A DNA stretch of 64,000 bases, from positions 25,958,365-26,022,364 of the forward strand of contig NC_092678.1 in assembly GCF_964355755.1 (NCBI RefSeq). The letters are read 5' to 3'. The notes beneath the pieces were generated by a model that was not told where the DNA came from, searched no databases, and saw nothing but the letters and a program-made list of their open reading frames with translations. This stretch comes from Antedon mediterranea. Taxonomy: Eukaryota; Echinodermata; Crinoidea; Comatulida; Antedonidae. The position numbers and the translations under genes were made by a program. Shown in pieces: positions 1-29,566 of the stretch (positions within the stretch are counted from its first letter, which is position 1; each line of letters begins with the position of its first letter).

Positions 1-1240
1 ACGTCTATAGGCCTGTAGGCGTCCTGCATGTGTTTTTGTGAAACGATCCAATGAGCTATAGATGCTCGACGCGATTATGAGATTATGTTCATTCATTCTT
101 TATTTAGCCTTTAAAATCGAAATACATTTAAAACATAGGTAACAAAATCAAGACACGTGGAAATCTAAGGAGGCAAGGATAAGCAAAAGCAATTAAAATC
201 GCTGTAGCTCACAGGCTTGCTTATCCATAATAATTCCGAATAAAGCACTGTTTCTATAATTTGACAGTATGATTTATATATAATTTACGTATATACGTCG
301 GCGATAGGTCTACTATAGATTTTAATTTGAATATCTTTTATTTCTTCATTTATTAATCATTTAATGTAAATAATTAAGTAAGTGCAACTCAGTGTCTCAC
401 ATTCATACGCCGTTCGTAAATATCTAAATGTTTAAATATCAGTGCAGATTACCTCTTTGAGAATCGTGTCCACCTTTATTATCCATACATTATTATTCTC
501 ACATAGTCTATCATTGTACATCATAGTCCTAATGTAGGCTGGTAGATTGATTTATAACGGCATATTATCTATATATTTTATTAATATCCTAAAACCATAC
601 GTAATTGTTTGCATAATAAAAGACACGACATACGTATATTCTCTATATAATATATTAATTACAGTACATATAAATAGAGGAATTATTATATGCCTAATAT
701 AACATTATGCCTAATATAATATTTAAACGTGTTTAGAAATGGCCATTGAAAAGACAGTCCTTCTCCGAGACCTGTGAAATACAAAAAAAAAATAATTTAA
801 TGATTGATAATAAATATTTATTAACCAAGTACAGTACACATAAATAATCTAGTTCCTAAAAAATATAAATTAAATCTATATAAACGAAAAATGTATATCC
901 CGCTCTAGCATCCAGCATCCCGCTCGATCCATACAAAATAGCGCGACCGATTTCACACGCGACCGATATCAAAAGTATAGCTCTAGCGGCGCGCCATACA
1001 AAATACCGGAAGTTGATTTTATCGCGACCGATTTCAGACGCGACCGATTTCAGACGCGACCGATTTCATCGTAAACTGAAGCTAGCTTACTACTAAACCA
1101 AACAAATTCTATTTTTACTCATTTATAGGCCTAACCAGCCATACATACATACAGAACAGAAAGGAGAAAATATTGAACTGAACCGTTTTTATATTCTTTA
1201 TTTTAGCTTTTTATATAATTCATTTTACTTCGTCGTAATC
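1..1240. other. upstream DNA of TMBIM4
   Basis: No coding exon is recognisable here. A short GC-richer tandem repeat of a 14-15 bp unit (gcgaccgatttcaga and variants) lies at about 943-1070, just upstream of the first TMBIM4 exon. A 22-nt stretch at 62-83 recurs exactly at 30210-30231, where it adjoins a tRNA-like sequence, so positions 1-90 are probably the edge of a retroposon copy. A promoter may lie here, but no specific element can be defended. Confidence 0.5.
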
Positions 1241-4955: not shown

Positions 4956-6203
4956 ATGTTTGGTATTTTCCAAGGCTATCAATTTGCATTTGAGCTTGAC
5001 TACAGTTTCCGTTACAAACAAAAACAAGACCTAAAGAAGAAAATAACAAACAATGGTGGAATAATAACGTACATCCTTACAAAAAAGGTATTTTGAACCA
5101 ACTGCAAAGATTTTATTGATATGCTAGACCCTATTAAGCCGATTTTCAACTAGACGAATTTATTCGCGCAAATAAAAATTGTAAGCTTATACGCAAACAT
5201 GCATGCGTATAACCTGACGCTTTCGATTCACACGAACGATTTCGCATAGTGGAAAATCGGCTTTAATCAATTTTATTTTTGGTACACTGTGTCATGTCAT
5301 ACTTTTTCTAAAACAGGTTTATTTGATTTCAGACCAACTTTTTGATTGTAAGTAATGGAAACCAAGCTGAGTTAACATACAAAGGTAGAACTGCTCAGAA
5401 ACATGATATACCAATAGTCACTGTGGAGTTTATATACCGTTGTGTAAATGAGCAAAAAGTATTGAATTTCACAGATTACCTGGCAACTGATGGTAAGCAA
5501 GTAAAGGAATTTGAAAAAGGAAAAATCAAAAGTAAGTATTTAACCATTTAATTGCCAGAGAGCACCAAACACCAAACATCATCACACACTTGTGTGTTTA
5601 TATTTGAACCTGTGTTCACTACTACTTCTTTCTGAAGAAGAACTATCTACCCAATTAAAAGATATTCTATCATTTCTAGATATACCTATAATCTTTATTA
5701 TTTATTGAAAAGCCATATACTGTACTTATTACATAATTATTCTGTCTATGTATTTAACAGGTAAAACTAAGAGTGCTATAAAGACAAGCAGTTCACTTAA
5801 TGTTAATGCAGTCACGTATGTACTATTATTTATACTTTACAAAAGGAAATTATTTGACACAAATTATTATTTTGTAAATTCAATTTATTGTCAAATACTC
5901 CAAAATGGCGAAGAGATAATAGTTTGGTTTTATTTAGGAGAATTTATTGACTTCTTATGCAAATTAACACTATGTTTTTTGTTATACTCAGTACATATAA
6001 ATAGAGTATTTTATTGACTATTTCTTAAGCTAATTAATACTGTTTTTTTTATTATCAGTACATACAAATAGAGTATTTTATTGACTATTTCTTAAGCAAA
6101 TTAATACTGTATGTTTTGTTTCAGTACATATAAATGGGGTGACAATAAAGCACCAGAGTTTGATGAATTCAATTATGAAGTTGCCAAAAGCTGTCTCCTT
6201 TTG
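4956..6203 (+). other. PARP4: PARP4 exons 1-4: BRCT domain
   Basis: The ATG at 4956 opens [18 protein letters not shown]. The paired motifs [16 protein letters not shown] and [18 protein letters not shown] are the two halves of a BRCT fold (about residues 1-110), with F/Y near the position of the usual conserved Trp. The exons use phases 0, 1 and 2 and close cleanly. The remainder (about 110-155) is a linker ending in [13 protein letters not shown]. Confidence 0.85.
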
Positions 6204-9200
6204 GTAAGTTTTATCTGAACAACTAAAAATCCAAATTAGTCACTGATTCACAGAGAATATCTACAGTCAAAATGTTATTAATTTTTTTTTCAGGGTTCAC
6301 CAAAACCCAAAAAGGGTAGCCTTTTTTACCAGCTTGAACTGCATGTTTTACCAATTACCAACCAGTCTACTATCAAAAAAAGCTTTCGTGTGTTCTGTCA
6401 CCATGGAAACTGCAATGACCTTAAGGTAGGCATACCTACAGTAGGTTTGTTAAGTTACGTACTACTGCCCTCACGTCAGCATTCATGAAGTTAAAAACTG
6501 TGTTATCACTTTATAAATAACCATACACAAAATGTTAATGTTTTTCCTTTGATTTTAATTAGGATGAAAATAGTGGTTCAAAAGAATGTCGGTATTTGCA
6601 GTCTAGCTCTGATGCCCTTAAAATATATGCACACTTATACAACTTGTACAGTGGTCCAGCCCACAATTACAAGAAATCAAACAAGTTTATCTCAAGATGG
6701 ATTGGATCTGATAAACAGAGAAAGGTAGAATTTGATTTGAAAAAAGAATGTAGAAAATTATGTAGTAGAACTATGAAATGTCATAATATTAATTACAATT
6801 AGTTTGAAACAACACAATTTGGAATTCATTAATTTCAATGTTTTTCTTTAGATCTCTATGGAATCCAGTTTTGAATCTGATTCTCTGTCATCAGAAATAG
6901 TTGAGTTGGTAGAGCATATTTGGCAAGAAGCAAATGAAGAACTAAATGAGCTCCTGTCTCTGCCGCAAGCAAGTCTAAAGAAAGAACAGGTACATTTGAT
7001 TCCTTGGCTACATGCCAATTTCATTGTTGGCTGTTTTGCCTTTTAAATATGCACATTGTTTTGGAAGGCAAGAATAGATACTAATGTTGTTGTTATTTAA
7101 TTTATTCAGGTTGAAAAAGCTGAAGCAATACTTCTACAAATAAAGCATGAATTGGATAAAAACCAAAATAGGACAGAGCTTGATAAACTTAGTAAGAGAT
7201 TCTTTGAGCTAATACCTCTTCAGAAAACGTACAGTGTGATTGAAGACAAACTGATGTTAACAAGAGTACATGATATTTGTCAAGTATGTAGAATTTTTTT
7301 ACTTTGTTCTTTGTTAATTATTTCAGCGGTCGTTATGATCTAGATCAAACAAACTGATTTTTTATTGCTTAATTTTATAGCTGATTAAAGATGTAGTGAG
7401 TGTGAGTGAAGCCACTGAATTTTCACCACGTAGCAGTATTCAGGCTAAGGTCCGTGCTCTCAGATGTCACATTCAGCATCTGTCAACTTCATCCCCAGAA
7501 TTTAAAACAATTTTAGACATGGTCAAGGCTAACAATGAAAGGTAAATAAAAGTGACATTTTAGACAAATATGCAATAAATACTAAGTTAAAATTATACAT
7601 AATTTAATATAAACTACAACATTTGTTAAAATTATTTTACAGTAGAAATAAATTTGATGTTAAAAACATTTTTGCTGTTAATCGACCAATCGAGGAGACT
7701 AACTTTGCAAATCATCTTGGAAATAAAAAGCTTTTATTTCATGCATCCAAGCCAGCAAACTTTGTTGGGATATTTACACGGTTTGTATAATAGTTTTGAT
7801 AATTATTTTGTAATAATGTTGACAACATCACACACAATAAAACATGTCTTTCCTATTAAAATAACAAGCATAGTACAGAACCTGATTCTATTCTTTGTTG
7901 TGTTATTATGTTTATCTTATATTGTTTGAAGGTTTTCATGGCGAAATCAAATGTTGATATAAAGTTTGCAGTACACCACATGTATTAGTTCTGAAAAGAA
8001 TTGTTGAGTCTCTCGACGTGCTTTGATCGTCCTAAGGAGTGAGAATGATTGATCGAAACGTCGAGAAACTCAACAGTTTATTTCAGAACTAATACATGTG
8101 GTGTACCGCAAACTTTATATCAACATATGTTTATCTTATAGTGTTAACTTACATATTTAATTGTGTCAGGTTGTCTTGATGTTAACACTTGTATTTTCAG
8201 AGGCCTTCTTCTGCCAAAAATAGTTGTAGATGATTTTGGTGGAAAAAGAACAGATCCTGGCAACCTGGGATGTGGAATTTATTTTACAGACAGTAGCAGG
8301 TATGCTCTATTATTAGTAACAATGATTGTGAATCTTAGTGTGTTACACTTCTTTTATATTGTATGCAAATTGTATTGTTTTCTATATTTTCAATAAAGAG
8401 ACAAAGACAGTTTTATTATTTATTTCATTTCATTGACCATAAGTATTGATTGCCTGAACTATAATGAAAAAAAGTATAAAAAGTGCTTTAACTACAACAT
8501 ATCTTTGGTTTATTTCTTTAATAGTACAAGTGGAAAGTACTCTTCTCGAGGAAAAGTTAAAGGATCTCGCTTTATGCTAGTAAATGAAGTAGCACTTGGA
8601 AAGTGTCTGGATATGAAGTCTAAAGATTACAAACTGTCATCTGCCCCAAGGGGCTATGATAGTGTGCATGGTGTGAAAACAGCAGTTGGAATAAAGTCGG
8701 ATTTCATGGTATTTTAACACACACTTTCAATAATAACTTTTAGTTGATGTAGATCCTGTATTTGAATCAGAATCTGAGTGGTGATTCCATTGTTTTTTTT
8801 ACACCAAATCCTTGATAGTGATTTTTGGCTCTAGTTAAAACAGCATTTGTTGATGTTTTTTTTTTTTTAAGGATGATGAGTTAGTTGTATACAATACAAA
8901 TCAACAACGCATTCGTTACCTTGTTGAGTTTACACTTCCTGAGGACACCATCAAAGATATTGTTCATATGTCGACGATGAAAGAATCACAGGATAAAGAT
9001 TTAGAAATGATGCATACAGATATCAGTAAGTAGCTATTTTGTTTATATTTAAAAAACACTGATTGAAATCTAGTTTATTAAGCATTATCTGATGAACACT
9101 TAATATTCCTAATGTTTTAGATATTGATGATATTGAATGTATTGTGAATCCATTGGACAAGGTACAAGCTGGTCTGCAGTCTGTGGACAATCATTCTGTC

Positions 9201-12200
9201 CCACTAACTGCTGTTCATATCAAAGCAAAGTTGATAGATCTTGCTGCTCAGGTTAGACTCAACAATTAATAGTTAGTTTCCATAACACTGTTCTAGTGAT
9301 CTTGTTGTATAATACATTGTTTCATTAAGTATAGTTGATCATACTTAACAAAATGTATGCTTTATGAACGTGTGCAATGGTACAGCTTGACCCTAACCTT
9401 TTTGTATAAGGTAAAAACTAAGCAAATAATTAATCATACCCAATTTTCACTGATAAATGAATCATTTTATTTACAGGTTGTTGTACTCCAAGCTTATAAG
9501 AATGACAACAACGTTCCAATTGAAGCCAAGTATGTATTCCCTCTGGATGACATGGCAGCAGTGTGTGGCTTTGAGGCTTTCATTGATGGTAAACACATCA
9601 TTGGTGAAGTTAAAGATAAAGAGGTCGCTCATCACGAATACAAAGAGGCCATCAGAAAAGGACATGGGGCTTACTTAATGGATGAGGAAACACCCGTAAG
9701 TAACTTAAGGGGCTTACTTAATGGATGAGGAAACACCCGTAAGTAACTTAAGGGGCTTACTTAATGGATGAGGAAACACCCGTAAGTAACTTAAGGGGCT
9801 TACTTAATGGATGAGGAAACACCCGTAAGTAACTTAAGGGGCTTACTTAATGGATGAGGAAACACCCGTAAGTAACTTAAGGGGCTTACTTAATGGATGA
9901 GGAAACACCCGTAAGTAACTTAAGAGGCTTACTTAATGGATGAGGAAACACCCGTAAGTAACTTCAGAGTTTTAAAACCCGCTTTAATATAACTAATTAC
10001 TAACTACATTGATTAAGAGCTTTGATTGGTTGATATAATAAGAGGTTACCTACATTGATTAAGAGCTTTGATTGGTTGATATAATAAGAGGTTACCTACA
10101 TTGATTAAGAGCTTTGATTGGTTGATATAATAAGGGGAGGTTACCTACATTGATTAAGAGCTTTGATTGGTTGATATAATAAGAGGTTACCTACATTGAT
10201 TAAGAGCTTTGATTGGTTGATATAATAAGAGATTACCTACATTGATTAAGAGCTTTGATTGGTTGATATGTAACATACATTGATTAAGAGCTTTGATTGG
10301 TTGATATAATAAGAGATTACCTACATTGATTAAGAGCTTTGATTGGTTGATATAATAAGAGATTACATACATTGACTAAGAGCTTTGATTGGTTGATTTG
10401 TTTTGTTTTCTAAAGGATGTTTTTACTGTGAGTGTGGGTAACTTGCCTCCAAATTCTGAAGTGTTGATTAAAATCACCTACGTAGCAGAGTTGGCTGTTG
10501 ATTCTAGTAAGATTGTTTTCAATCTTCCCGGCAGTGTAGCACCTTGGAAAAAAAATAGTGCTCTCTCTGTGACAACACAGGAAGAAATGGAAACCATGAA
10601 GATTTCGAGCAAACCAAAAGGGTACACATATTTCACATTTTATTATGCCAATGTTTTATCAATTGAAAATAAAAGGTTGTCACCTAACTAAGCTTTTGAA
10701 AGCATTTGTAATTTAATTTATGAATTTGTATTTTGTAATGTAATTTCCATTGATAGTATTTTAAATGATACAAACAAATTAATTTTCCCCCGCAGAGATA
10801 CATCAGTCCAGGTTGCAATTGAGATGCCTTATGAAATTCGTTCCATTAAGTCTCCAACTCATCCTGTCAAAATGAAGGTAACAACAAATATATAAGTGAA
10901 TTATTTGTTATTGATCAATAAATATTGACTAGCTTCAGGTATTGATAGATTTTTTTTATTATCTAGCAATCTGCTACCAAGGCTACAGTAGAATTACAGA
11001 AGAATATTTCACTGGGAGATGGTTTTCAACTGTTGATCCAATTAGCAGAAATACATGTACCCAGAATGTGGGTTGAGAGACATCCAGAAAAGGTTGACTC
11101 ACAGGTATGACTTGTTTAAAACAGAAAAGGTTGACTCACAGGTATGACTTGTTTAAAACCAAATGTTTCAATATGTTTTTGATATTCCAGTAGTTTAAAA
11201 AAAAAAATTTAAAACAAATGTATGTACGATATTTTTTTCCCATGACATTTACTTTGTTGTTGTTAATAGGCATGTATGTTGACATTCTATCCTAAGTTTG
11301 AAAGTTAAAATAAATTTAGTTATGATAGTTTTTACATTTGCTGCATTTGTTGTTGTTATTAGGCATGTATGTTGACATTCTATCCTGAGTTTGAAAGTGA
11401 AGATAATGAATCTCCAGAGATTCTATTAGTGCTTGATTTGTCAAACTCAATGAAAGGAGAGAATTTGTTGGAAGCTAAGAAGATTCTTCTTATGACTCTT
11501 CATCATCTTCCATCTAAAGCACTGTTCAACATCATCACATTTGGAACAAGTAAGGCGGAAATTATTATCATCTGTTAAACAAAATAGTAAAATATTTGGC
11601 CAATACAAAACAAATTTGTAATCGATGTACTGATATCTTTGTTTTTTAGATTTTGACGAGTTGTTTCCAGCTAGCCAACCAGTGTCTAATGCTAATCTGT
11701 CTCTTGCTAAAACGTTCATCTTCTGTGTTCAAGCTAATATGGGCAACACAGAAGTATGGCGTCCTCTTCATGCCTACTTTTTGCTTAGTGATGCCAAATG
11801 TCTGCGCAACATCTTTTTGATTTCTGATGGACACATCAATAATGAGGAATCTACTTTAAGAGCAATTCGACTAAATTCAAAAACTAACCGAGTGTTTACT
11901 TTTGGGATAAGGTATATTAGTTTTCAATCCATAAGATGAATTTAGTTTAAATAAAATGTTTTTAACTTATAAAATTCATGAATGGTCATTCAGAAGAGAA
12001 TCATTGTATTCATGTCTTCAACTGTTTCTATTACCTTAGCTCTAGTGGCAACAAACACTTGCTGAGAGCCATCGCCCGTGTCGGAACTGGAGCCTTTGAA
12101 TTCTTTGATACAACTACAAAGTCCAAGTGGGAAAGAAAGGTTAGAGGTTAAATAAAAATAAACAAAATAATTATAATCTGTTTTAGAATGACACTAAATA

Positions 12201-15200: not shown

Positions 15201-18200
15201 ACCCGGGGTCACAACTGTCAATCAAATAACCGTTATTTCGTGTTGCAGCTAAGAATTGCTCAGCGATAACCGGTTAAACGGCGTTCTAACACCGATTTAA
15301 ATTGGTGTTTTTAACCGGTTATTTTGCGCTGCCTTTTAACCGGTTACCACAAATTTGTCCTGTTTCTGCTGCCAAGAAAATGGAGTTAATTTATTCACAC
15401 CGATTTTAATTTATTCACACCGATTTTAACCGGTTATTTTTATGCAGCAGAAACAGGCCCTGAGGTACACGCAGGAGGAAACAATGAGCCAAACAAAACT
15501 TTAGATTGCTTGTTACATAATTTATTGGAATAATTTAGTTAGTGCCACCAGACCATATTGAAGGTTGTCTGCATATAAAGCAGAAGTGTTTGAATTATGT
15601 TTGGTACATAATTTTCTTTAAAAAAGAGTTAAATAATAGTAAGTACTTTTTAAAAATGAATTTATATTGTTCAAAAATACATACAGACTGATTTCCTTGG
15701 AACTGTTTTCAAGCCAAGTATTAATGACCTGGTTGCGAAAGAAGATGTTGATGTTATTCCTTATATTGGCTGGGAAGAAAATTTTGAGCATAGTGTTCAG
15801 AAAAAAGAAGTTGGATGTACAAGTTTGGAAGAAAATAATGAAGATGAATATTCAGTTTCAGAGTCTTATTATTCTGAAGATTTTTTGGTAAGACTAAGTA
15901 CACCCATAAAACACACAATAAGATAAGATAAGGATAAGAGAAAATATAAGAAAATAACTGGGAAAAAATCAAACAATGGAATATATATTAGGAAGATGTA
16001 TAACATCATTGTATTGATCATTTGAAAATGAAATGAATAAAAGTAGTTAACGCCACAAAAGAGAAAAAAAAAAATAGTAAAACACACAATCAAGTGATTC
16101 TAATAACTACTTTAAAACCTTTCTGTCCAATAATTATATGTTGTCTTGAGAGTTGTTCTATTTAGCTTTTACATTAATACTAAATTGTATTTTTAATCTT
16201 TTAGAGTGAATCGGACATGCTTTGCAATTTTGAATATTTAGGTTAGTGAATGATATTGTGTTATATAATTGTGTATAAACAACATTACACCATGTTAAAT
16301 ACTACATGACAGGAACACATAATTTATTATGATTCATGTTAGGGCTTTGACTCCTAACCCTTTTTGTATCTCAAACCATTCTATACTGTATGCCATTCTA
16401 TAATACCAAATTGCCTGATTGTATAGTCTATTATTAAAATATACTGTATGCCATTCTATAATACCAAATTGCCTGATTGTATAGTCTATTATTAAAATAT
16501 ACTGTATGCCATTCTATAATACCAAATTGCCCGATTGTATAGTCTATTATTAAAATATACTGTATGCCATTCTATAATACCAAATTGCCTGATTGTATAG
16601 TCTATTATTAAAATATACTGTATGCCATTCTATAATACCAAATTGCCTGATTGTATAGTCTATTATTAAAATATACTGTATGCCATTCTATAGTACCAAA
16701 TTGCCTGATTGTATAGTCTATTATTAAAATATACTGTATGCCATTCTATAATACCAAATTGCCTGATTGTATAGTCTATTATTAAAATATACTGTATGCC
16801 ATTCTATAATACCAAATTGCCTGATTGTATAGTCTATTATTAAAATATACTGTATACCATTCTATAATACCAAATTGCCTGATTGTATAGTCTATTATTA
16901 AAATATACTGTATGCCATTCTATAGTACCAAATTGCCTGATTGTATAGTCTATTATTAAAATATACTGTATGCCATTCTATAATACCAAATTGTCTGATT
17001 GTATAGTCTATTATTAAAATATACTGTATACCATTCTATAATACCAAATTGCCTGATTGTATAGTCTATTATTAAAATATACTGTATGCCATTCTATAGT
17101 ACCAAATTGCCTGATTGTATAGTCTATTATTAAAATATACTGTATGCCATTCTATAATACCAAATTGCCTGATTGTATAGTCTATTATTAAAATATACTG
17201 TATGCCATTCTATAATACCAAATTGCCTGATTGTATAGTCTATTATTAAAATATACTGTATGCCATTCTATGATACCAAATTGCCTGATTGTATAGTCTA
17301 TTATTAAAATATACTGTATGCCATTCTATAATACCAAATTGCCTGATTGTATAGTCTATTATTAAAATATACTGTATGCCATTCTATGATACCAAATTGC
17401 CTGATTGTATAGTCTATTATTAAAATATACTGTATGCCATTCTATAATACCAAATTGCCCGATTGTATAGTCTATTATTAAAATATACTGTATGCCATTC
17501 TATAATACCAAATTGCCTGATTGTATAGTCTATTATTAAAATATACTGTATGCCATTCTATAATACCAAATTGCCTGATTGTATAGTCTATTATTAAAAT
17601 ATACTGTATGCCATTCTATAATACCAAATTGCCTGATTGTATAGTCTATTATTAAAATATACTGTATGTCATTCTATAATACCAAATTGCCTGATTGTAT
17701 AGTCTATTATTAAAATATACTGTATGCCATTCTATAATACCAAATTGCCTGATTGTATAGTCTATTATTAAAATATACTGTATGCCATTCTATAATACCA
17801 AATTGCCTGATTGTATAGTCTATTATTAAAATATACTGTATGTCATTCTATAATACCAAATTGCCTGATTGTATAGTCTATTATTAAAATATACTGTATG
17901 CCATTCTATAATACCAAATTGCCTGATTGTATAGTCTATTATTAAAATATACTGTATGCCATTCTATGATACCAAATTGCCTGATTGTATAGTCTATTAT
18001 TAAAATATACTGTATGTCATTCTATAATACCAAATTGCCTGATTGTATAGTCTATTATTAAAATATACTGTATGCCATTCTATGATACCAAATTGCCTGA
18101 TTGTATAGTCTATTATTAAAATATACTGTATGCCATTCTATAATACCAAATTGCCCGATTGTATAGTCTATTATTAAAATATACTGTATGCCATTCTATA

Positions 18201-21200
18201 ATACCAAATTGCCTGATTGTATAGTCTATTATTAAAATATACTGTATGCCATTCTATAATACCAAATTGCCTGATTGTATAGTCTATTATTAAAATATAC
18301 TGTATGCCATTCTATGATACCAAATTGCCTGATTGTATAGTCTATTATTAAAATATACTGTATGCCATTCTATAATACCAAATTGCCCGATTGTATAGTC
18401 TATTATTAAAATATACTGTATGCCATTCTATAATACCAAATTGCCTGATTGTATAGTCTATTATTAAAATATACTGTATGCCATTCTATAATACCAAATT
18501 GCCTGATTGTATAGTCTATTATTAAAATATACTGTATGCCATTCTATGATACCAAATTGCCTGATTGTATAGTCTATTATTAAAATATACTGTATGCCAT
18601 TCTATAATACCAAATTGCCCGATTGTATAGTCTATTATTAAAATATACTGTATGCCATTCTATAATACCAAATTGCCTGATTGTATAGTCTATTATTAAA
18701 ATATACTGTATGCCATTCTATAATACCAAATTGCCTGATTGTATAGTCTATTATTAAAATATACTGTATGCCATTCTATAATACCAAATTGCCTGATTGT
18801 ATAGTCTATTATTAAAATATACTGTATGCCATTCTATAATACCAAATTGCCTGATTGTATAGTCTATTATTAAAATATACTGTATGTCATTCTATAATAC
18901 CAAATTGCCTGATTGTATAGTCTATTATTAAAATATACTCTATGCCATTCTATAATACCAAATTGCCTGATTGTATAGTCTATTATTAAAATATACTGTA
19001 TGTCATTCTATAATACCAAATTGCCTGATTGTATAGTCTATTATTAAAATATACTGTATGTCATTCTATAATACCAAATTGCCTGATTGTATAGTCTATT
19101 ATTAAAATATACTGTATGCCATTCTATAATACCAAATTGCCTGATTGTATAGTCTATTATTAAAATATACTCTATGCCATTCTATAATACCAAATTGCCT
19201 GATTGTATAGTCTATTATTAAAATATACTGTATGCCATTCTATAATACCAAATTGCCTGATTGTATAGTCTATTATTAAAATATACTGTATGCCATTCTA
19301 TAATACCAAATTGCCTGATTGTATAGTCTATTATTAAAATATACTGTATGTCATTCTATAATACCAAATTGCCTGATTGTATAGTCTATTATTAAAATAT
19401 ACTCTATGTCATTCTATAATACCAAATTGCCTATGTAATTTTTATTAATTAAATTGCTGGTTCTTTTACAGATTATGAAGTTGGCGACTCATTTGAATCA
19501 GAATGTAAGTGAATGGTTTGCTATTACAGTACAGCTTGTAGATCAGTTAAGACCCTTTCTCACAGACGTGCCTGCAATATACCGGTATGATGCTGGCGTC
19601 GTGCCGGTATCGTTACCGGCATATACCTATTCTCATTACGGCATGGTAATGGTACATTCCCGCAACATTTCTGGCACACAGCTCTGTGAGAATGGGGCTT
19701 TATAGGAATATATAGTCTCTAGTGTGATGTCCTGTTAAGTAATTATTTTGTTTTTTCTGTAATTTTTATTAATTAAATTGCTGGTTCTTTTACAGATTAT
19801 GAAGTTAACGACTCATTTGAATCAGAATGTAAGTGAATGTTTTGCTATTACAGTACAGCTATTTGAATGTAAGTGAATGACTTGCTATTACAGTACAGCT
19901 ATTTGAATGTAAGTGAATGTTTTGCTATTACAGTACAGGTATTTGAATGTAAGTGAATGTTTTGCTATTACAGTACAGCTATTTGAATGTAAGTGAATGT
20001 TTTGCTATTACAGTACAAGTATTTGAATGTAAGTGAATGTTTTGCTATTACAGTACAGCTATTTGAATGTAAGTGAATGTTTTCCTATTACAGTACAGCT
20101 ATTTGAATGTAAGTGAATGTTTTGCTATTACAGTACAGGTATTTGAATGTAAGTGAATGTTTTGCTATTACAGTACAGGTATTTGAATGTAAGTGAATGT
20201 TTTGCTATTACAGTACAGGTATTTGAATGTAAGTGAATGTTTTGCTATTACAGTACAGGTATTTGAATGTAAGTGAATGTTTTGCTATTACAGTACAGGT
20301 ATTTGAATGTAAGTGAATGTTTTGCTATTACAGTACAGGTATTTGAATGTAAGTGAATGTTTTGCTATTACAGTACAGGTATTTGAATGTAAGTGAATGT
20401 TTTGCTATTACAGTACAGCTATTTGAATGTAAGTGAATGTTTTGCTATTACAGTACAGGTATTTGAATGTAAGTGAATGTTTTGCTATTACAGTACAGGT
20501 ATTTGAATGTAAGTGAATGTTTTGCTATTACAGTACAGGTATTTGAATGTAAGTAAATGTTTTCCTATTACAGTACAGGTATTTGAATGTAAGTGAATGT
20601 TGTGCTATTACAGTACAGCTATTTGAATGTAAGTGAATGTTTTGCTATTACAGTACAGGTATTTGAATGTAAGTAAATGTTTTCCTATTACAGTACAGGT
20701 ATTTGAATGTAAGTGAATGTTTTGCTATTACAGTACAGGTATTTGAATGTAAGTGAATGTTGTGCTATTACAGTACAGGTATTTGAATGTAAGTGAATGT
20801 TTTGCTATTACAGTACAGGTATTTGAATGTAAGTGAATGTTTTGCTATTACAGTACAGTAAATATATGAAGGTCAGATACATGATGACTTGCACCATACA
20901 CCGGACTTGTAGGACTATATCCCGGACTTGTAGCACTATATCCCGGACTTGTAGCACTATATCCTGGAATTGTAAACCCTAACCCTATTTATTTATTTAT
21001 TTACTGAAAAATTAAATCCTAAAAATAAACATGTTAGGAGATTCAATCTTGTATTCTCAATACCTATTTATCCGGATGATAAAAGAAATGATTTTGCATT
21101 TTTTGTTTTTATTTATATATTTGGTTGCGTTTACTGTACAACTCCAGAATTTTGTCTTACAGTTCAAGAAAAATATAGTGCTACAATTCCAGGATATAGT

Positions 21201-24200
21201 GCTACAAGTCCGGGATATAGTGTTACAAGTCCGGGATATAGTGTTACAAGTCCGGGATATAGTCCTACAAGTCCGGGATATAGTCCTACAAGTCCGGGAT
21301 ATAGTCCTACAAGCCCGAGATATAGTCTTACAAGCCCGAGATATAGTCTTACAAGCCCGAGATATAGTCCTACAAGTCCGGTGTATGGTGCAAGTCATCC
21401 TGTATCTAGCCATACAGGTACGAAATTCCTATTGTATTGGGATGCAAATTTACAATATTACTACTATAACAATATCAACTTATGAAATCATTATGAATCT
21501 ATGATAAATAATATATTAAATTAGATATCAGTCAAAATAAATAAATATATTGTATTTTTGCTTTTGTTGTTTATCATTATAAAGTGTGAAAGTCGTTTAG
21601 AGTAAACTTTGAAATTATAAAATATTCACTATGTGTGATAAACCGTAATCATCAGTGAGATTTTGTAATCATTATCACCACTACATTTAAAAAATATTCA
21701 TAATAAAATATTCACATTGTGCTAAAATAAACATTCTGTACCAGCTCAAATAATAATTATGTTTTACTGGCACAGATATGCCTATTGTAATGGACTCCGG
21801 TTCATTTTCAATTAAAGCTGGAATGGCTGGAAACACTTTCCCGTCCAGGGAACTACCAAGTGTTGTAGGTCGTCCTCGTCACCAAGGTGTCATGGTTGGC
21901 ATGGGTCAAAAAGGTGCATATGTTGGGACAGAAGCTGTTGGAGGCTCCTCACATCTATGTAAGTATAGAAAATGGTCTGAATCAACATTTTTAAATCTCA
22001 TCTTTTTGTTTGTTTGTTGAGAATTGTCAAAATCAACATTTTTAATTCTTATCTTTTTGTCTGTTGAGAATTGTCTGAATCAACATTTTTAATTTTCATC
22101 TTTTTGTCTGTGTGTTGAGAATTGTCTGAATTCAAATTATATCAATATGATTGATAATTTAAAACAAATTATATATTACAATTTCTTTTCTTTAGTTCGT
22201 AAAATAGAAAAAAAAAAAAGAAATTCAGATCAGCCAACCTTCTCTTATGTCTCTATGGGTACTTCTCCTCGTCCTTTACGTCTACCACCTCCACCTCAAC
22301 CTAAACCAAAGCTAGATACGTTTGTTGGATGGATGGATAATGATGAAGATGATGATGATGATTATGATGATATGGGTTTTGGGGATCCATGTCCACCTAA
22401 ACCAAAGCCAGGTATGTTTGGTGCAAGACATTTAAAAAAAATATTATTATAGATTTCAAGATGCTCTAATTTATTAACAAATAAAAATGTTTAAAATATA
22501 AAGATGAGTATACATATAGATATTACAAACCAAATCTCTACAGATTACTGTATTTCAAATTTGTGAATTATGTTTAATTTAAAGCAGTACCTGCCATCTG
22601 TTTTATTTAACACTGAATTTATTGTAATCAAATCTAGCATTGTATATTGTGGCAGGAGTTTTTTAGTTTTAGATAGTTTAATTTTGTAGACTTTGTGCAA
22701 GTTAAAAAGTGGCACGCTTTCAAAGTGCTTGTTGACATAAAACATATTCCTCATGTAATACAGTATTACATTTTGCAGGCCCACAGCAAATGCAACAACA
22801 GCAAATGCTTGGTAAGACAACACGACAATCAGCTGAACAGACGACTGATAGATTACCGGCAGTAGAACGTTCATTGACCTTAGGTACTTTTGATTATTAC
22901 TTAAAGATTATTATTAATGACAAGCTATTCTTACAAATTGCACCATGTATTTCATAAAATCTCATTAAATTCATTCCCACCACCACACCATTCATTTGGT
23001 AGTCGTCGTAAGTTAGTGTTTTCCCTCAATATACATCATTTTAAATTTTAAATCCACCACCACTATCATCACGAGGTGCATCTGTATCACCTTCTGCTTC
23101 ACTTCTGTCAAAACTTTGTCCACCACCACCTCCACCAAAGCCACCAGCATCTGTATCAATTCCTCTAGGTACAATTGTTGGATCGATGGATAATGATGTT
23201 GAAATGGGTTTTGGTGGTCCATGTCCACCTAAACCAAAACCAGGTATGTTTGGGGCAATTTTTTTTTATGTTATATCACAGGGTTCAATATTTTAAAAAA
23301 GATTTTAAGATGCTCTAGTTTAGTAACAAATAAAAATGTTTAAAATATAAAGATGAGTATACATATGGATATTACAAACCAAGTCTCTACAGATTGCTGT
23401 ATTTCAAATTTAAAGCAGTACCTGCCATCTGTTTTATTCAACAATGAATTTATTGTTATCAAATGTAGTATTGCATATTGTGGCAGGAGGTTTTAGTTTT
23501 AGTTTTGTAGACTTTTTGTGCAAGTTAAAAAGTGGCACGCCTTGAAAGTGCTTGTTGACATAAAAAACATTCCTCATTTAATACAGTATTACATTTTGCA
23601 GACTCACGATCAGTTCCGCTTATAATGCTTGGTAAGACAACACAACAATCATCTGAACAGACGACTGATAGATTACCTGCAGTAGAACGTTATAGAACGC
23701 AAAAATGTATTACCTTAAGATCTGGTGCATCTATACAAAGCCCCTCTATGGGTATGGCTCCACCTGCAGCTGCTGCTGTTGAACGGTCACCACCTTTAGT
23801 AAAATCAGGTACGTTTGTTATTTATCTATACAAAGTCTCTCTATGGGTATGGCTCCACCTGCAGCTGCTGCTGTTGTACAGTCACCACCTTTAGCAAAAT
23901 CAGGTGCGTTTGTTATTTATCTATACAAAGTCTCTCTATGGGTATGGCTCCACCTGCAGCTGCTGCTGTTGTACGGTCACCACCTTTAGCAAAATCAGGT
24001 ACGTTTGTTATTTATCTATACAAAGTCTCTCTATGGGTATGGCTCCACCTGCAGCTGCTGCTGTTGTACGGTCACCACCTTTAGCAAAATCAGGTGAGTT
24101 TGTTATTTATCTATACAAAGTCTCTCTATGGGTATGACTCCACCTGCAGGAGCTGCTGCTGTTGTACGGTCACCACGTTTAGCAAAATCAGGTGAGTTTG

Positions 24201-27200
24201 TTATTTATCTATACAAAGTCTCTCTATGGGTATGGCTCCACCTGCAGCTGCTGCTGTTGTACGGTCACCACTTTTAGAAAAATCAGGTGCGTTTGTTATT
24301 TTTACTTGAACACAGATTTGTCTTTGTAGCTTTGTAGTGCTGTGCACATAAATCGCTGTGACATTATTATGGTAGTTGATTGATTATTCAATCCAGTGTT
24401 TCTCTCTTCTTTTTTTTTCAGAAGACTTGTTAATGACCAATAGGGAACAAAATGTAACGAAAATGTTAACAATGAAAACTCGTGGACTTTCACCACCAAC
24501 AAACTCTAGTGCTTCAGATCCATCACTTCCTCGTCTTTCAAAACAATATCGTGTACCACCTCCACCTCCACCTAAACCAAAGCTAGATACGTTTGTTTTA
24601 ATGGATAATGATGAAGATTACGATGAAGATGATGATTACGATTATAATGCTATGGGTTTTGGTGATCCATGTCCACCTAAACCAAAGCCAGGTATGTTTG
24701 GTGCAAGACATTTTATTTATTTTTTTATATTATATCACAGGGTCCGATATTTTAAAAAAAGATTTCAAAATTCTCTAATTTATTAACAAATAAAAATGTT
24801 TAAAATATAAAGATGAGTATACATATAGATATTACAAACCAAATCTCTACAGATTACTGTATTTCAAATTTGTGAATTATGTTTAATTTAAAGCAGTACC
24901 TGCCATCTGTTTTATTTAACACTGAATTTATTGTAATCAAATCTAGCATTGTATATTGTGGCAGGAGTTTTTTAGTTTTAGATAGTTTAATTTTGTAGAC
25001 TTTGTGCAAGTTAAAAAGTGGCATGCTTTCAAAGTGCTTGTTGACATAAAACATATTCCTCATGTAATACAGTATTACATTTTGCAGGCCCACAGCAAAT
25101 GCAACAACAGCAAATGCTTGGTAAGACAACACAACAATCAGCTGAACAGACAACTGATAGATTACCGGCAGTAGAACGTTCATTGACCTTAGGTACTTTT
25201 GATTATTACTTAAAGATTATTATTAATGACAAGCTATTCTTACAAATTGCACCATGTATTTCATAAAACTCTCATTAAATTCATTCCCACCACACCATTC
25301 ATTTGGTAGTCGTCGTAAGTTAGTGTTTTCCCTCAATATACATCATTTTAAATTAGTAAACAATTATTGCTTTATATGATAGGTGACATGCGTAGGAAGC
25401 GTGAAAGACGTGAAACAGATGCATATAAAGAAGAAATATCCGACGCAATCTCCCTTCATCGATGTAAGTATTTAGAGAATTTTCAGATTAAAAAATGTTG
25501 GTATGGTTAAATTTATACTATTCTACTATTCTATGTATGTGTATGTGGGTGAATGTATGTAGAGAATGAATCCTGTTAGTCTTTTGTTAGAGTTTGATGC
25601 AAATGATTTTGAGGTAAGTATCAAACACTACTATCTGCTTTGATTGTAGCTTCGCAAGCAAAGAGAAAACAGCGTGAACATTTTCAAAAAATTATTATTA
25701 TACTCAATATACATTATTTTAAATTAGTGATCAATTATTGCTTTACATGCTAGGTGACATGCGTAGGGAACGTGATACGTGTAGGCAACTTGATACGCGT
25801 AGGGAACGTGATACAGATGCATATGAAGGTGAATGTAGATCTCGTACATTTCGACAAAAGCGCTGTATGGATATGGCTCCAACTTCAGCTGCTGCTGTTG
25901 TACGGTCATCACCTTTAGCAAAATCAGGTGAGTTTGTTATTTATTTATACAAAATCTCTCTTTGAGTATGGCTCCACCTTCAGCTGCTGCTGTTTTACAA
26001 TCACCACCTTTAGCAAAATCAGGTGAGTTTGTTATTTATGGGTATGGCTCCACTTGCAGCTGCTGCTGTTGTACGGTCACCACCTTTAGCTAAATCAGGT
26101 GAGTTTGTTATTTATCTAGACAAAGTCTCTCTATGGGTATGGCTCCACCTGCAGCTGCTGCTGTTGAACAGTCACGGCCTTTAGCAAAATCAGGTGAGTT
26201 TGTTATTTATTTATACAAAATCTCTCTTTGAGTATGGCTCCACCTTCAACTGCTGCTGTTTTACGATCACCACCTTTAGCAAAATCAGGTGAGTTTGTTA
26301 TTTATCTAGACAAAGTCTCTCTATGGGTATGGCTCCACCTGCAGCTGCTGCTGTTGTACGGTCACCACCTTTAGCAAAATCAGGTGAGTTTGTTATTTAT
26401 CTAGACAAAGTCTCTCTATGGGTATGGCTCCACCTGCAGCTGCTGCTGTTGTACGGTCACCACCTTTAGCAAAATCAGGTGGGTTTGTTATTTATCTATA
26501 CAAAGTCTCTCTATGGGTATGGCTCCACCTGCAGCTGCTGCTGTTGAACAGTCACCACCGTTAGCCAGATCAGGTATTTTTGTTATTTTTACTGAAGAAC
26601 ACAGATTTGTCTTTGTAGCTTTGTAGTGATGTGCAAATAAATCGCTGTGACATTATTATGGTAGTTGATTGATTATTTAATCCAGTGTTTCTTTCTTTTT
26701 TTTTTTAGAAAACTTGTTAATGACAAAAATAACATATAAGACAAGAAACAGAGAAAGGAAAAGAAATTCATCCATCCATGGTGTGTTTATGCATCTCACA
26801 TTACTTCATTTACCACATATTTTGAAGAATAGTTTTTTGTTACTGTTTACTCATTATATATTTTATGTTACACTTTTAATAAAATGATTTTTCTGGTACA
26901 GTGAAATTGAAAACAATAAAAATGTATTAAACATTAGTTTAATCATGGACCTATTCTAATTTATATGTCCATGGTTCAATAGTGAAGACTTACTAACAGA
27001 GCTTCAAAAAAAATTCTAGCAAATAAGGCAATGTTTTCAAAATTCAAAGCAGAGAATACTCAACTATGGACATTTGGTGCACCTACTTTCAATATATCAA
27101 TATCTATTCTGGTTTTCATCCAATTATTGTTTCACTGAAATATTTTGTCACATTTGTCGTTTAGAAAGTATGGAACCGAGGAAGAGTGGAGTGCGTGTAT

Positions 27201-29566
27201 TTGGATTGAACAGAACAGATCTATTGTCGTACTACAAAAGTAAGTCTTTTCACTGTTTCTGTAAACCTTAACTCAGTATAATAACAATTTAAATGGTTTA
27301 TAAAAAAATGAATTTGTGGATAAAAATAACAAACATAATACACTTAAATGCTGGTAGCAAATGTATGAGAGTTTAGTTTCTAACTTGACTCTAAATCAAC
27401 CAAACAATGTATGATTCTTCAGATACCATATTTTGTATATAGTAATAAACATTTTATCTTATTTTTAAAAATGTTAGAAGATGAGCCAAACCTAGCTTTT
27501 GTATTTGAATCACTAAAAGAAGCCATTAATGCACAAGACAAAGTAAGAAACAAATTAATGATTATATAATATTGTGATTATTCAATGTTGACTCACTAAA
27601 GGAAGCCATTAATGCACAAGACAAAGTAAGAAACAAATTAATGATTATATATTATTGTGATTATTCAATGTTGACTCACTAAAGGAAGCCATTAATGCAC
27701 AAGACAAAGTAAGAAACAAATTAATGATTATATAATATTGTGATTATTCATGATGTGATTGTGATTATTCATGATGTCATAATCTATGATATCCGTCATT
27801 ATTGTGTTCAGTGTGTTGTTATTATTATTTGTTTATATGTAACATATTTTTGATTTGTAATCATCATGATTACATTTATTAACCGAAGTTTATTCACATT
27901 TTTATATTAAAGGCTTCTGGTTCCTGGTCGAGATTGTCTATTAAAGAGCTGATCAAACTTGATGCTGTCATCAATGATCAGTTAAAAGAAATTTCACAAA
28001 AAGATGGTAAATATAGAATTCATTATCATTTCCCAGTTGTTCTTAAGATCCAGTGTATGAATCAATCTTATGTACAGCAGTAGTTGTATGTCTGCTAGAG
28101 TGTGTACTTCAATCCTGTTCACTCCTTTTTTCAGATTCAGTGTATGAATCAATCTTATGTACAGCAGTAGTTGTATGTCTGCTAGAGTGTGTACTTCAAT
28201 CCTGTTCACTCCTTTTTTCAGATACAGTGTATGAATCAATCTTATGTACAGCAGTAGTTGTATGTCTGCTAGAGTGTGTACTTCAAAATTGGAAACAGTT
28301 TACAATAATAATTGACAGAGAAATAACAGAAGAGTATCATAATGCAATAACCAGTCTTTGGAATGCAGAGTTCTTTCTTCAGTCAGTGGTGCAGCCCAGT
28401 GAACATTACAATGTGAAAGAACCAACCTGGATTGAATATGCTGAAAAGCACTTGCTTGAGACTCCTCAGATAGGTAAGTCATCCTCATCAACGTTAGCAA
28501 CTTTATTTGTTTGTGATTGATCTTACACTTTGTTAAATAGTAGCTTACAATAATTTAACAGTGAGTAATGGTAATTTTAAAAGGTAGTGTTAGGTTGTAG
28601 ATTGATGTTGATAAGTTCTCCTTTCAGGCTTACATGATAAAACATCTATATTCATTGATTCTGAAGGTTTGATGTGCCTGGAAGGCCGATTAACAGGAAT
28701 GTTAAAAACAGGTTATGGAATAACTGTGAGTAAATGTATCTTCTTTGTTAATGTAAATCTTTGTATCTTTTGACGTGTTTTTTCAATATCGTATTTTTTG
28801 ATGTTTTTTATAATTTTAAGAGCTTTGTCTGTGTACAATCTTTAAATTTTAAATATTATATATATTTCACAATAAATGCTGTGCAAGCAGCGCATTCATG
28901 TATTATAGGTGACTGTGAGTATGTAGGTTACTGAGTAATGTATTATTAAACTGATATAGTGGTTAATCCTACAGACATCCACAACTGGTTCAGATGAATT
29001 ATATTATTTCAAGAAATTAATTGTTTGTTTTAAAGCATACATTCTGGAGATTATCAGCTTGTTTTGCAGTACTCTTTGCTATTGATCGTAGATATGTTTC
29101 ACAACTTTTCAACCAAGCTGGACTCCGGTCTCTGGGTATGTGCTGTAGTATACATGTTTATTAGTACTACTGTCTCATAGTTTTGTGCTGAATTTAATGA
29201 TTCTATTATTTACTGAGAAAGGTTGGGTTCTTAACAGTCTGAGAAATAAAGTAATTGCTGTGTGTTTTTTTAATAGGAGTCAAACGTCAACAAGCAGTAT
29301 ATTCCATGTTTACCATGGCTGTTGGCATCAAGTTATTAACTAATGCTGCAAAGGATACCACCTCTTTCACCAAATCTGGAGAAATGGATGCATATTATAA
29401 TTTGAAACATCTATTGGCCGAGTTGGAAACTTCCCTAAATGATAAAGAAAGGAGTTACTTAGGACTTGCCAGAAATCTAGACATGGGCAGCAATTGGCGC
29501 AATGTAGCTTCAAAATTATGCAGATTTGAACAAGATGAAGATGGAGCCGGCTGTAATTGGTTGTAA
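4956..29566 (+). CDS. PARP4: PARP4 (vault PARP) with an expanded modular tail
   Basis: Exons: 4956-5087, 5333-5531, 5761-5815, 6125-6203, 6294-6425, 6563-6724, 6852-6989, 7110-7283, 7381-7541, 7643-7780, 8201-8299, 8525-8708, 8872-9025, 9121-9251, 9477-9695, 10416-10621, 10796-10877, 10967-11104, 11363-11549, 11650-11911, 12040-12139, 12230-12400, 12836-12916, 13572-13754, 15687-15887, 16205-16241, 19472-19504, 19796-19828, 21163-21417, 21776-21958, 22196-22411, 22779-22883, 23602-23808, 24422-24691, 25088-25192, 25383-25463, 25754-25927, 26709-26780, 27165-27239, 27478-27542, 27913-28006, 28222-28473, 28628-28725, 29036-29135, 29277-29566. They sum to 6,513 nt, an uninterrupted frame of 2,170 residues against about 1,720 in vertebrates. 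PARP4 ADP-ribosylates proteins on vault ribonucleoprotein particles and binds the major vault protein. The domain order BRCT, PARP regulatory, catalytic, VIT, vWA and C-terminal vault-binding region is complete; the extra length is the exon-modular tail (about residues 1257-1846). The tail exon set is inferred from splice consensus and phase and may be alternatively spliced. Confidence 0.9.
6294..9251 (+). other. PARP4: PARP4 regulatory and ADP-ribosyltransferase domains
   Basis: Exons from 6294 to 7541 encode the WGR-less linker and the helical regulatory domain ([20 protein letters not shown]; about residues 260-400). The catalytic core follows with [14 protein letters not shown] (H444), [12 protein letters not shown] (Y484) and DDELVVYN (E554). 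H-Y-E is the full transferase triad, so the enzyme should be active. Vertebrate PARP4 is generally classed as a mono-ADP-ribosyltransferase despite having this Glu. The donor loop ([16 protein letters not shown]) and the EVALGK strand are intact. Confidence 0.93.
7951..8126. mobile_element. 176-bp MITE-like hairpin in a PARP4 intron
   Basis: The whole segment folds back on itself. The left arm (gttgataTAAAGTTTGCAG..., then ccacatgtattagttctga) is repeated in inverse order on the right with only scattered mismatches; arms are about 75 bp around a short loop. It sits between the two catalytic-domain exons ending at 7780 and starting at 8201. Flanking AT could be a two-base target duplication. 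Confidence 0.8.
9668..9965 (+). repeat. 43-bp array repeating an exon end and its splice donor
   Basis: Seven copies of a 43-bp unit start inside the last 28 nt of the VIT exon and run into the intron. Each contains the coding end (CTTACTTAATGGATGAGG), the codons for ETP and the donor CCC/GTAAGTAAC. The first copy is the true exon end at 9695; the other six are perfect or near-perfect decoy donors. Confidence 0.9.
10008..10412. repeat. 46-bp intronic tandem array
   Basis: About nine copies of a unit containing cattgattaagagctttg and attggttgatataataag fill the rest of the intron up to the acceptor of exon 10416. One copy is shortened near 10265. The terminal copy runs directly into the pyrimidine tract (ttttgttttctaaag). 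Confidence 0.9.
11088..11362 (+). repeat. duplicated exon edges between two vWA exons
   Basis: The end of exon 10967-11104 with its donor (aaaaggttgactcacaggta) is repeated once about 36 bp downstream. The start of exon 11363 with its acceptor and the codons for ACMLTFYP is present in a decayed copy at about 11262-11310, which runs into stop codons. Both flanks of one intron therefore carry junction duplicates. Confidence 0.85.
12446..12656. repeat. 52-bp intronic tandem array
   Basis: Four copies of a unit with acaatttaaatatccagatt and gtgtccttggttactcag lie in the intron after exon 12230-12400. No coding segment is included. Confidence 0.88.
13125..13571 (+). repeat. 82-bp array repeating a splice acceptor and exon start
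   Basis: Five tandem 82-bp units precede exon 13572-13754. Each holds aaacctgtag followed by ATACTACACCAACTGACGG, the acceptor and first codons (ILHQLTAR) of that exon; the sixth and last occurrence is the real exon start. The vertebrate-like reading [16 protein letters not shown] fixes the acceptor choice. Confidence 0.9.
13826..15459. mobile_element. 1.6-kb DNA transposon with nested palindrome in a PARP4 intron
   Basis: Terminal inverted repeats begin GGtCTGTTTCTGCTGCATAA at 13826 and close as its reverse complement ending at 15459. They are flanked by CTGAG on both sides (13821-13825 and 15460-15464), a likely 5-bp target duplication. Copies of AACCGGTTA are scattered near both ends, like subterminal transposase sites. 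Inside is a second inverted repeat with arms of about 210-230 bp (about 14300-14525 and 14720-14930). No transposase ORF is visible, so it is non-autonomous. Confidence 0.8.
16381..19431. repeat. 58-bp satellite, about 52 copies, inside a PARP4 intron
   Basis: A very homogeneous 58-bp unit (ccattctataataccaaatt, then gcctgattgtatagtc and tattattaaaatatactgt) runs for about 3.05 kb between exon 16205-16241 and exon 19472-19504. Units differ by a few recurrent single changes (TAATACC/TGATACC, GCCATTC/GTCATTC, GCCTG/GCCCG) that recur in blocks, which indicates multi-unit duplication. Confidence 0.97.
19472..19828 (+). other. PARP4: PARP4 twin 33-nt exons
   Basis: Two 33-nt phase 1-1 exons, 19472-19504 and 19796-19828, each after the same acceptor region (ttgctggttcttttacag) and before GTAAGT, encode [11 protein letters not shown] and [11 protein letters not shown]. 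The exon with its upstream intron end has been duplicated. Between them (about 19540-19710) is a CCGGTAT-rich hairpin-forming insert. Either or both exons can be included without changing frame. Confidence 0.75.
19829..20868 (+). repeat. 40-bp array with a donor and an acceptor in every unit
   Basis: About 26 units, each gtaagtgaatgttttgctat followed by tacagtacaggtatttgaat, follow directly on the second 33-nt exon. Each unit contains the donor GTAAGT, a pyrimidine-rich tract with the acceptor TATTACAG, and a 15-nt segment (tacaggtatttgaat or tacagctatttgaat) before the next donor. The founding sequence is the exon end TTTGAATCAGAAT/GTAAGTGAATG. Confidence 0.95.
20872..20975 (-). pseudogene. 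inverted partial copy of the heptad-repeat exon
   Basis: Read on the minus strand this segment reproduces the first and last parts of the exon at 21163-21417: heptads [28 protein letters not shown], then YGASH. It has fewer heptads and no splice signals in this orientation. It lies about 190 bp upstream of the true exon, so the transcript contains a reverse complement of its own coding exon. Confidence 0.85.
21163..21417 (+). other. PARP4: PARP4 exon with RNA-polymerase-II-CTD-like heptads
   Basis: A 255-nt phase 1-1 exon with acceptor tcttacag and donor CATACAG/GTACGA. After FQEK it encodes ten consecutive heptads of the form Y-S-x-T-S-P-x: [21 protein letters not shown] (twice), YSPTSPG (twice), [14 protein letters not shown] (twice), YSPTSPV, followed by [12 protein letters not shown] (residues about 1291-1375). 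The consensus equals that of the RNA polymerase II largest-subunit C-terminal domain. The reading frame matches both neighbours. Function here is unknown. The Ser-Pro sites could be kinase targets. Confidence 0.85.
21776..21958 (+). other. PARP4: PARP4 exon encoding an actin N-terminal segment
   Basis: A 183-nt phase 1-1 exon (acceptor ctggcacag, donor CTAT/GTAAGT) encodes 61 residues (about 1376-1436) that align without gaps to the first part of actin. [13 protein letters not shown] corresponds to the first phosphate-binding loop, and [17 protein letters not shown] followed by AYVGTEA to subdomain 2 with the DNase-I-binding D-loop. The D-loop is almost unchanged, whereas the nucleotide loop is altered (DSGSF for the usual DNGSG). 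No further actin sequence is present downstream, so this is a captured exon and not a complete actin gene. Confidence 0.85.
23809..24296 (+). repeat. 95-bp array repeating an exon end and donor (copy 1)
   Basis: Five units follow exon 23602-23808. Each has the coding end ATGGGTATGGCTCCACCTGC through CCTTTAGCAAAATCAG and a donor (GTACGT, GTGCGT or GTGAGT), then tttgttatttatctatac. The period of 95 is not a multiple of three, so in-frame inclusion of successive units is not supported. Confidence 0.9.
25928..26575 (+). repeat. 95-bp array repeating an exon end and donor (copy 2)
   Basis: About seven units of the same family as the array at 23809 follow exon 25754-25927, again reproducing the exon end (GCTGCTGCTGTT ... 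AAATCAG) and GTGAGT. Units differ mildly (SPPL/SSPL-type codons, CCTTCA for CCTGCA), which shows independent expansion after the block duplication. Confidence 0.88.
27543..27770 (+). repeat. tandem copies of an exon end plus donor
   Basis: The last coding 37 nt of exon 27478-27542 (tcactaaaagaagccattaa ... GACAAA) and its donor GTAAGA are present three times in all, the genuine one and two intronic copies about 82 bp apart. Confidence 0.88.
28040..28221 (+). repeat. tandem copies of an acceptor plus exon start
   Basis: The first about 60 nt of exon 28222-28473 (GTGTATGAATCAATCTTATG ... GTACTTCAA) occur twice upstream with a period of about 85 bp. The second copy has its own complete acceptor (cactccttttttcag). 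The last copy is the one continuous with the rest of the exon. Confidence 0.9.

What the first reader, a model, noticed from the sequence alone, without database searches (positions are those of the whole stretch)
21776..21958. Actin N-terminal exon captured inside PARP4
A phase 1-1 exon encodes 61 residues aligning to actin's start, including an almost intact D-loop ([12 protein letters not shown]). It reads through in frame from the heptad exon and into the proline-rich exons. No other actin sequence is nearby. The nucleotide loop is changed (DSGSF), so selection seems to favour the D-loop surface. I infer a vault-linked enzyme displaying an actin D-loop mimic that could bind actin partners or DNase-I-like proteins. 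I know of no PARP4 described this way.
Basis: partly seen in the sequence, partly recalled or inferred. Interest (0 to 1): 0.92.

Follow-up and report, generated by a model that had tools for sequence, protein, structure and literature searches.

The report
Actin D-loop exon inside vault PARP

Summary
Window 21776-21958 is an open 183-bp exon with AG/GT borders and phase 1-1. Its residues 3-54 match actin 8-59 (E about 1e-16). It lies between the BRCT-ART-VIT-vWA exons and the C-terminal exons of a PARP4 gene, and is the only such place found in the genome. It spans the point where the three canonical actins here break after codon 41, so it probably came from actin cDNA or an intronless copy. 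Against them the D-loop part keeps 17 of 18 residues, the subdomain-1 part only 11 of 25 (Fisher p = 0.0009). Synonymous sites are saturated, so neither gene conversion nor neutral drift explains this. The two divergent actins scored show no such excess. A PARP4 paralogue on another contig lacks the exon. Actin or actin-binding domains in PARP4-like proteins of Salpingoeca, Capsaspora and Acanthamoeba were reported in 2014. Splicing into PARP4 is inferred: the last clear upstream exon is in the wrong phase to join the heptad exon directly. I favour a D-loop peptide docking PARP4 or vaults on actin; binding is untested. New variant of a known kind; interest 0.6.

The parts
21776..21958 (+). actin-derived exon, phase 1-1, 61 codons with the split ends
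21784..21858 (+). segment A: residues matching actin 8-32 (subdomain 1, phosphate-loop hairpin), decayed: 11 of 25 residues as in canonical actin of this genome
   Evidence: subdomain border recalled
21859..21912 (+). segment B: residues matching actin 33-50 with the D-loop ([18 protein letters not shown]), kept: 17 of 18
21913..21936 (+). segment C: residues matching actin 51-58, 5 of 8 kept; likeness to actin ends just after
21163..21417 (+). preceding exon, phase 1-1: heptads like the RNA polymerase II CTD (YSPTSPG/R), a homogeneous 21-bp minisatellite
   Evidence: (PF05001 2.5e-18)
22196..22411 (+). following exon, phase 1-1: proline-rich then acidic ([29 protein letters not shown])
   Evidence: a short proline stretch in the C7 paralogue (PPPLPPKLKL) is alike but not significant, E 1.3
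22779..22883 (+). next exon, phase 1-1 ([16 protein letters not shown]...)
5327..5548 (+). open frame holding BRCT exon of PARP4
   Evidence: PF16589 2.4e-6
7608..8714 (+). exons of the ADP-ribosyltransferase (ART) domain
   Evidence: PF00644
9339..10688 (+). VIT domain exons
   Evidence: PF08487 3.2e-24
11363..11936 (+). vWA domain exons
   Evidence: VWA_3; 1.9e-5 and 6.5e-6, just under the Pfam cut-off
15660..15887 (+). open frame of the last clear PARP4 exon before the disordered part; the one donor of GTRA type found is at 15888, phase 0
29021..29563 (+). open frames of the C-terminal region matching the C7 paralogue; taken as the MVP-interacting domain from its place and from recalled human sequence
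   Evidence: 2.9e-9 and 1.0e-7; no Pfam family for 29255-29563

Best explanation
An intronless actin copy, most likely reverse-transcribed mRNA, was exonised into the phase-1 exon array that codes the disordered linker of PARP4 between its ITIH-like part and its vault-binding end. It lost nucleotide binding and the actin fold. Its D-loop was kept as a linear peptide that lies in the groove between actin subdomains 1 and 3, as the D-loop of the next protomer does in a filament. With the proline-rich exons beside it, which may bind profilin, it would tether this PARP4 copy, and so vaults or ADP-ribosylation, to actin. Shown: the exon, its phase and borders, likeness to actin, place in the gene, absence of the codon-41 break, and selective keeping of the D-loop part. 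Inferred: splicing into the mRNA, cDNA origin, a disordered linker, actin as the ligand, profilin, and the tethering role.
For: Actin match E about 1e-16. One place found. Intact frame through four phase 1-1 exons of 255, 183, 216 and 105 bp. PARP4 domains upstream and PARP4 C-terminal exons downstream, with a second copy on C7. The three canonical actins break after codon Q41; this exon does not. Segment B 17 of 18 kept against A 11 of 25, Fisher p 0.00085; the C8 actin gives A 21 of 25, B 13 of 18 (p 0.46) and the C4 actin L006 A 25 of 25, B 13 of 18 (p 0.009, the other way round). Fourfold sites in the 17-codon D-loop stretch differ at 8, 7 and 7 of 9 from the three actins, so no recent gene conversion. 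dN against them is 0.66-0.71 for A and 0.10-0.12 for B; dS was undefined in all but one of these comparisons (2.3). In a neutral simulation at six distances, 20,000 runs each, both results came together in at most 0.0001 of runs. The D-loop contacts SD1 and SD3 of the next protomer (PMC10072879, passages). Actin or actin-binding domains occur in other PARP4-like proteins (PMC4245714). The genome has MVP-shoulder matches, so a vault shell protein is likely present.
Against: No transcript evidence. The upstream exon ends in phase 0 and the heptad exon starts in phase 1; the best candidate bridging exon (19472-19685) has no homologue to support it. The C7 paralogue has no trace of exon or heptads, so the module is dispensable or new, and its only proline-rich likeness is not significant (E 1.3). 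A lone 61-residue actin piece probably does not fold: AlphaFold from one sequence gave mean pLDDT 57.9 and returned no secondary structure, which says little. Selection could have acted before capture, in an actin now lost. No other species could be examined. No binding is shown.
Confidence: 0.4

Rival explanations
1. The exon is a remnant of an older actin domain in PARP4-like proteins, inherited and trimmed, and lost in the C7 copy, rather than a fresh capture.
For: PARP4-like proteins of a choanoflagellate, a filasterean and an amoeba are reported with actin or actin-binding domains, and actin is named as an extra C-terminal domain of some. Exon against actin differs at 16 of 21 fourfold sites, the two PARP4 copies at 169 of 367; Fisher p 0.012, so the exon may be older than the gene duplication.
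Against: Canonical actins differ among themselves as much (19 of 26 between two of them), so the donor may simply be unsampled. No actin trace in C7. The extent of the actin parts in the 2014 proteins was not seen.
Confidence: 0.2
2. The D-loop is kept for another reason than docking on actin: it is bait or a sensor for enzymes that act on the actin D-loop (MICAL oxidation of M44/M47, actin-cleaving bacterial proteases), coupling damage to ADP-ribosylation. An integrated decoy.
For: The target residues are all present: G42-V43, M44, M47, K50. MICAL and grimelysin sites are as in the abstract beginnings of PMC10705957 and PMC7311988 (listing).
Against: No test. MICAL acts on filamentous actin (same listing). 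Any intact D-loop would carry the same residues.
Confidence: 0.08
3. The exon is not part of mature PARP4: a captured actin fragment, or a second small gene, lies in the long intron region, and its D-loop likeness was shaped while it was still part of an actin gene.
For: Phase mismatch with the last clear upstream exon; the region is full of minisatellites, one with splice-like sites in nearly every unit; no remnant in the paralogue.
Against: Canonical borders on both sides, symmetric phase shared with three neighbours, open frame only in that phase. A fragment decaying evenly would hardly keep 17 of 18 beside 11 of 25.
Confidence: 0.22
4. Ordinary neutral exonisation; the D-loop was kept by luck.
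For: Such exons are tolerated in a phase-1 array (inference).
Against: Neutral simulation and the A against B contrast.
Confidence: 0.05

Closest known systems
PARP4-like proteins with actin or actin-binding domains (Salpingoeca rosetta, Capsaspora owczarzaki, Acanthamoeba castellanii; PMC4245714, section 9 read)
   Same: clade-5 (vault) PARP carrying an actin-related part, with a proposed cytoskeletal link
   Different: those were found as database domains in unicellular species; here a PARP4 with BRCT, VIT and vWA carries a 61-residue piece in the linker with a decayed phosphate loop and a selected D-loop. Whether they are homologous was not testable.
PARP4 / vault PARP (human architecture: PMC10450202, passages)
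   Same: BRCT, HD/ART, ITIH-like region with VIT and vWA, C-terminal MVP-binding region, long disordered regions
   Different: no actin or CTD-like heptads in the passages seen on human PARP4; 'actin' has 0 occurrences in its main text
POTE-actin chimeras of primates (search listing only; mechanism recalled)
   Same: an actin retrocopy joined to an unrelated gene
   Different: POTE carries nearly all of actin at its C-terminus (recalled); here one internal symmetric exon holds only actin 8-59
Actin D-loop / barbed-end groove contact (PMC10072879, passages)
   Same: the sequence [12 protein letters not shown] is identical to canonical actin of this genome
   Different: presented in a linker, without the rest of subdomain 2

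Membership tests
PARP4 (clade-5 vault PARP) | BRCT plus ART plus VIT plus vWA in one gene | tested here: met
   vWA just under the Pfam cut-off; joined as one gene by order and strand, not by transcripts
PARP4 (clade-5 vault PARP) | C-terminal MVP-interacting domain | tested here: inconclusive
   region conserved with the C7 paralogue but no Pfam match; likeness to human only recalled
PARP4 (clade-5 vault PARP) | H-Y-E catalytic triad | tested here: inconclusive
   LFHAS, GIYFTDS and DDELVVYN are present in the open frames; the assignment is recalled, no structure aligned
Actin | sequence homology of the N-terminal region | tested here: met
Actin | nucleotide-binding phosphate loop DNGSG | tested here: not met
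   DSGSF
Actin | full four-subdomain fold | tested here: not met
   only residues 8-59; no other actin match found in the window
Actin | D-loop sequence | tested here: met
Actin-domain PARP4-like proteins of unicellular relatives | same actin segment at the homologous place | not testable with these tools
   no collection of eukaryote genomes at hand; figure of PMC4245714 not held
Retrocopy-derived exon | absence of the donor's introns | tested here: met
   spans the break after Q41 of three canonical actins; an intronless donor is equally possible, one divergent actin on C8 also has no break there
Retrocopy-derived exon | poly-A tail or target-site duplication | not tested
   too diverged to expect

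The most novel reading that the evidence does not exclude
A vault-associated ADP-ribosyltransferase carries a selected, detached actin D-loop as a linear motif, beside CTD-like heptads and proline stretches that may recruit profilin. Through it vaults dock on or cap actin, or sense agents that modify the actin D-loop.
Probability: 0.3. Interest if true: 0.82.

Novelty: new variant of a known kind. Interest (0 to 1): 0.6.

Why it matters
What PARP4 and vaults do is still open. A piece of actin kept by selection inside PARP4, mainly at the surface that contacts actin, would give a concrete and testable link between vaults, ADP-ribosylation and the cytoskeleton. It would also be a clean case of a linear motif made by capturing part of a globular protein's interface.

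Tried and rejected
Gene conversion from actin: rejected, since 8, 7 and 7 of 9 fourfold sites in the D-loop stretch differ from the three canonical actins. Origin from the divergent C8 actin, which also has no break after codon 41: not favoured, its D-loop reads RSVMVGVGTK and its fourfold sites are hardly closer (14 of 21 differ). Assembly error: no N in the window and one place found, so a misplaced actin fragment is unlikely. Remnant of the exon in the C7 paralogue: none above noise in the 30 kb fetched (best E 8.8). Single-sequence AlphaFold of the exon: uninformative; no fold search was made. Papers tying vaults to F-actin: 10 of 23 listed, none opened or used. Papers on a PARP4 with an actin part: 1 paper, a mussel proteome, not opened; 5 papers; 10 of 679 listed. 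Of these only PMC4245714 and PMC10450202 were opened; the first reports it. Heptads as capture from RPB1: the PARP4 units are a homogeneous 21-bp minisatellite, unlike the varied units of the C5 array that I take for RPB1, so convergent repeat growth is as likely.

Four further divergent actins (L007, L008, L012, L013) were read but not counted because of gaps or uncertain exon joins in the D-loop; by eye their D-loops are changed too. The simulation assumed AT-rich base frequencies and a transition bias that I chose. While checking I found that the proline-rich likeness to C7 is not significant, so I lowered the best explanation from 0.42 to 0.40 and raised the separate-gene rival from 0.20 to 0.22.

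Full report
WHAT IS THERE. At 21776-21958 there is a 183-bp open stretch with AG before it and GTAAGT after it, read in phase 1-1; the other two frames carry stops. Its residues 3-54 match actin 8-59 with best E 9.8e-17 against PDB sequences and above the Pfam Actin cut-off. The D-loop string [12 protein letters not shown] is unchanged; the phosphate loop reads DSGSF. The exon was found at one place only. Of 58 Pfam Actin matches listed for the genome, this is the only one in the window.

THE GENE. Upstream, on the same strand, are BRCT, ART, VIT and vWA exons (vWA just under its cut-off). Downstream at 29.0-29.6 kb are open frames that match the end of a second PARP4 copy on contig C7. The 25 in-frame stretches that I kept from that comparison share 39-95% of amino acids. 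The heptad exon, the actin exon and the next two exons (255, 183, 216, 105 bp) are all phase 1-1 and read through in frame. In the 30 kb fetched, the C7 copy shows no heptads or actin; a short proline stretch (PPPLPPKLKL) is alike but not significant, E 1.3. One weakness: the last clear upstream exon ends at 15887 in phase 0, as its counterpart does in C7, while the heptad exon starts in phase 1. At least one more exon must lie between. By a simple splice-site rule 19472-19685 or units of the 40-bp array would fit; neither is proven.

ORIGIN. The three canonical actins (C1, C1, C4) break after codon Q41, as an intron would cause; in three divergent ones the break is CAG|GTA (L006, L007, L008). 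The exon runs across this point. A cDNA copy or an intronless actin is the simplest source. Synonymous sites are saturated or close to it (16 of 21 fourfold sites differ from each of the three, 14 of 21 from C8, 13 of 17 from L006), so the event is old or the donor is lost. The two PARP4 copies differ at 169 of 367 fourfold sites (my sum; Fisher p 0.012). This hints that the exon is older than the duplication, but canonical actins differ from each other as much (up to 19 of 25-26), so the hint is weak.

SELECTION. Split at the recalled border of subdomains 1 and 2, segment A keeps 11 of 25 residues and segment B, with the D-loop, 17 of 18 (Fisher p 0.00085). The divergent C8 and C4 (L006) actins keep 21 and 25 of 25 in A and 13 of 18 each in B. 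dN is 0.66-0.71 in A and 0.10-0.12 in B against the canonical actins; dS was undefined but for one value of 2.3. A neutral simulation at six distances gave the observed pair of values in at most 0.0001 of runs. Recent gene conversion is excluded by the synonymous differences. What cannot be excluded is that part of this history took place in an actin before capture.

MECHANISM. In filaments the D-loop of one actin meets subdomains 1 and 3 of the next, and H39/40 and M43/44 are among the anchors (PMC10072879, passages). A detached D-loop could bind the same groove, or a protein that reads the D-loop. The neighbouring proline stretches could bring profilin-actin (inference). MVP-shoulder matches occur in the genome, best E 1.6e-16, so vaults are likely present. 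I therefore favour tethering of this PARP4 copy to actin. A decoy or sensor for D-loop-modifying enzymes is a bolder alternative without a test.

LITERATURE. PMC4245714 (section 9 read) states that PARP4-like proteins of S. rosetta, C. owczarzaki and A. castellanii have actin or actin-binding domains, and names actin as an extra C-terminal domain of some PARP4-like proteins. The idea of an actin link in PARP4 is thus in print. I saw no report of a D-loop-only segment among the papers listed (1, 5, and 10 of 679), of which I opened two. PMC10450202 (passages) gives the human domain plan; its main text has no occurrence of actin.

VERDICT.

Noticed in passing
window 9666-9964, 11085-11159, 13120-13597, 19825-20858, 23729-24301, 26037-26588, 27505-27750, 28046-28286: Minisatellites in this gene often seem to span exon-intron borders and so multiply splice sites (arrays; borders by eye). 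The 40-bp array has about 26 units with an acceptor, a 15-nt stretch and a donor; the 95-bp arrays seem to carry a 66-nt phase 1-1 exon per unit (by eye).
   Followed up: partly
window 21163-21417 and inverted copy 20893-20974: Heptads like the RNA polymerase II CTD inside PARP4 (PF05001, 2.5e-18), a homogeneous 21-bp array with an inverted copy just upstream that could form a hairpin.
   Followed up: partly
window 9477-9716 against L016:6440-6679; window 13572-13775 against L017:1329-1532: Two stretches of the PARP4 copies on C9 and C7 are 93% and 86% identical in DNA while the other 23 compared are 56-84%: possible gene conversion between chromosomes, or stronger constraint.
   Followed up: partly
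window 22093-22452, 23045-23296, 24376-24786 (open frames): Three copies of a proline-rich then acidic stretch (such as [13 protein letters not shown]...DNDED...[11 protein letters not shown]), with some neighbouring DNA also duplicated (22545-22907 and 24854-25216), seen by eye.
   Followed up: no
window 1097-2639: Open frames that look like a multi-pass membrane protein of the TMBIM/Bax-inhibitor type (by eye, recalled).
   Followed up: no
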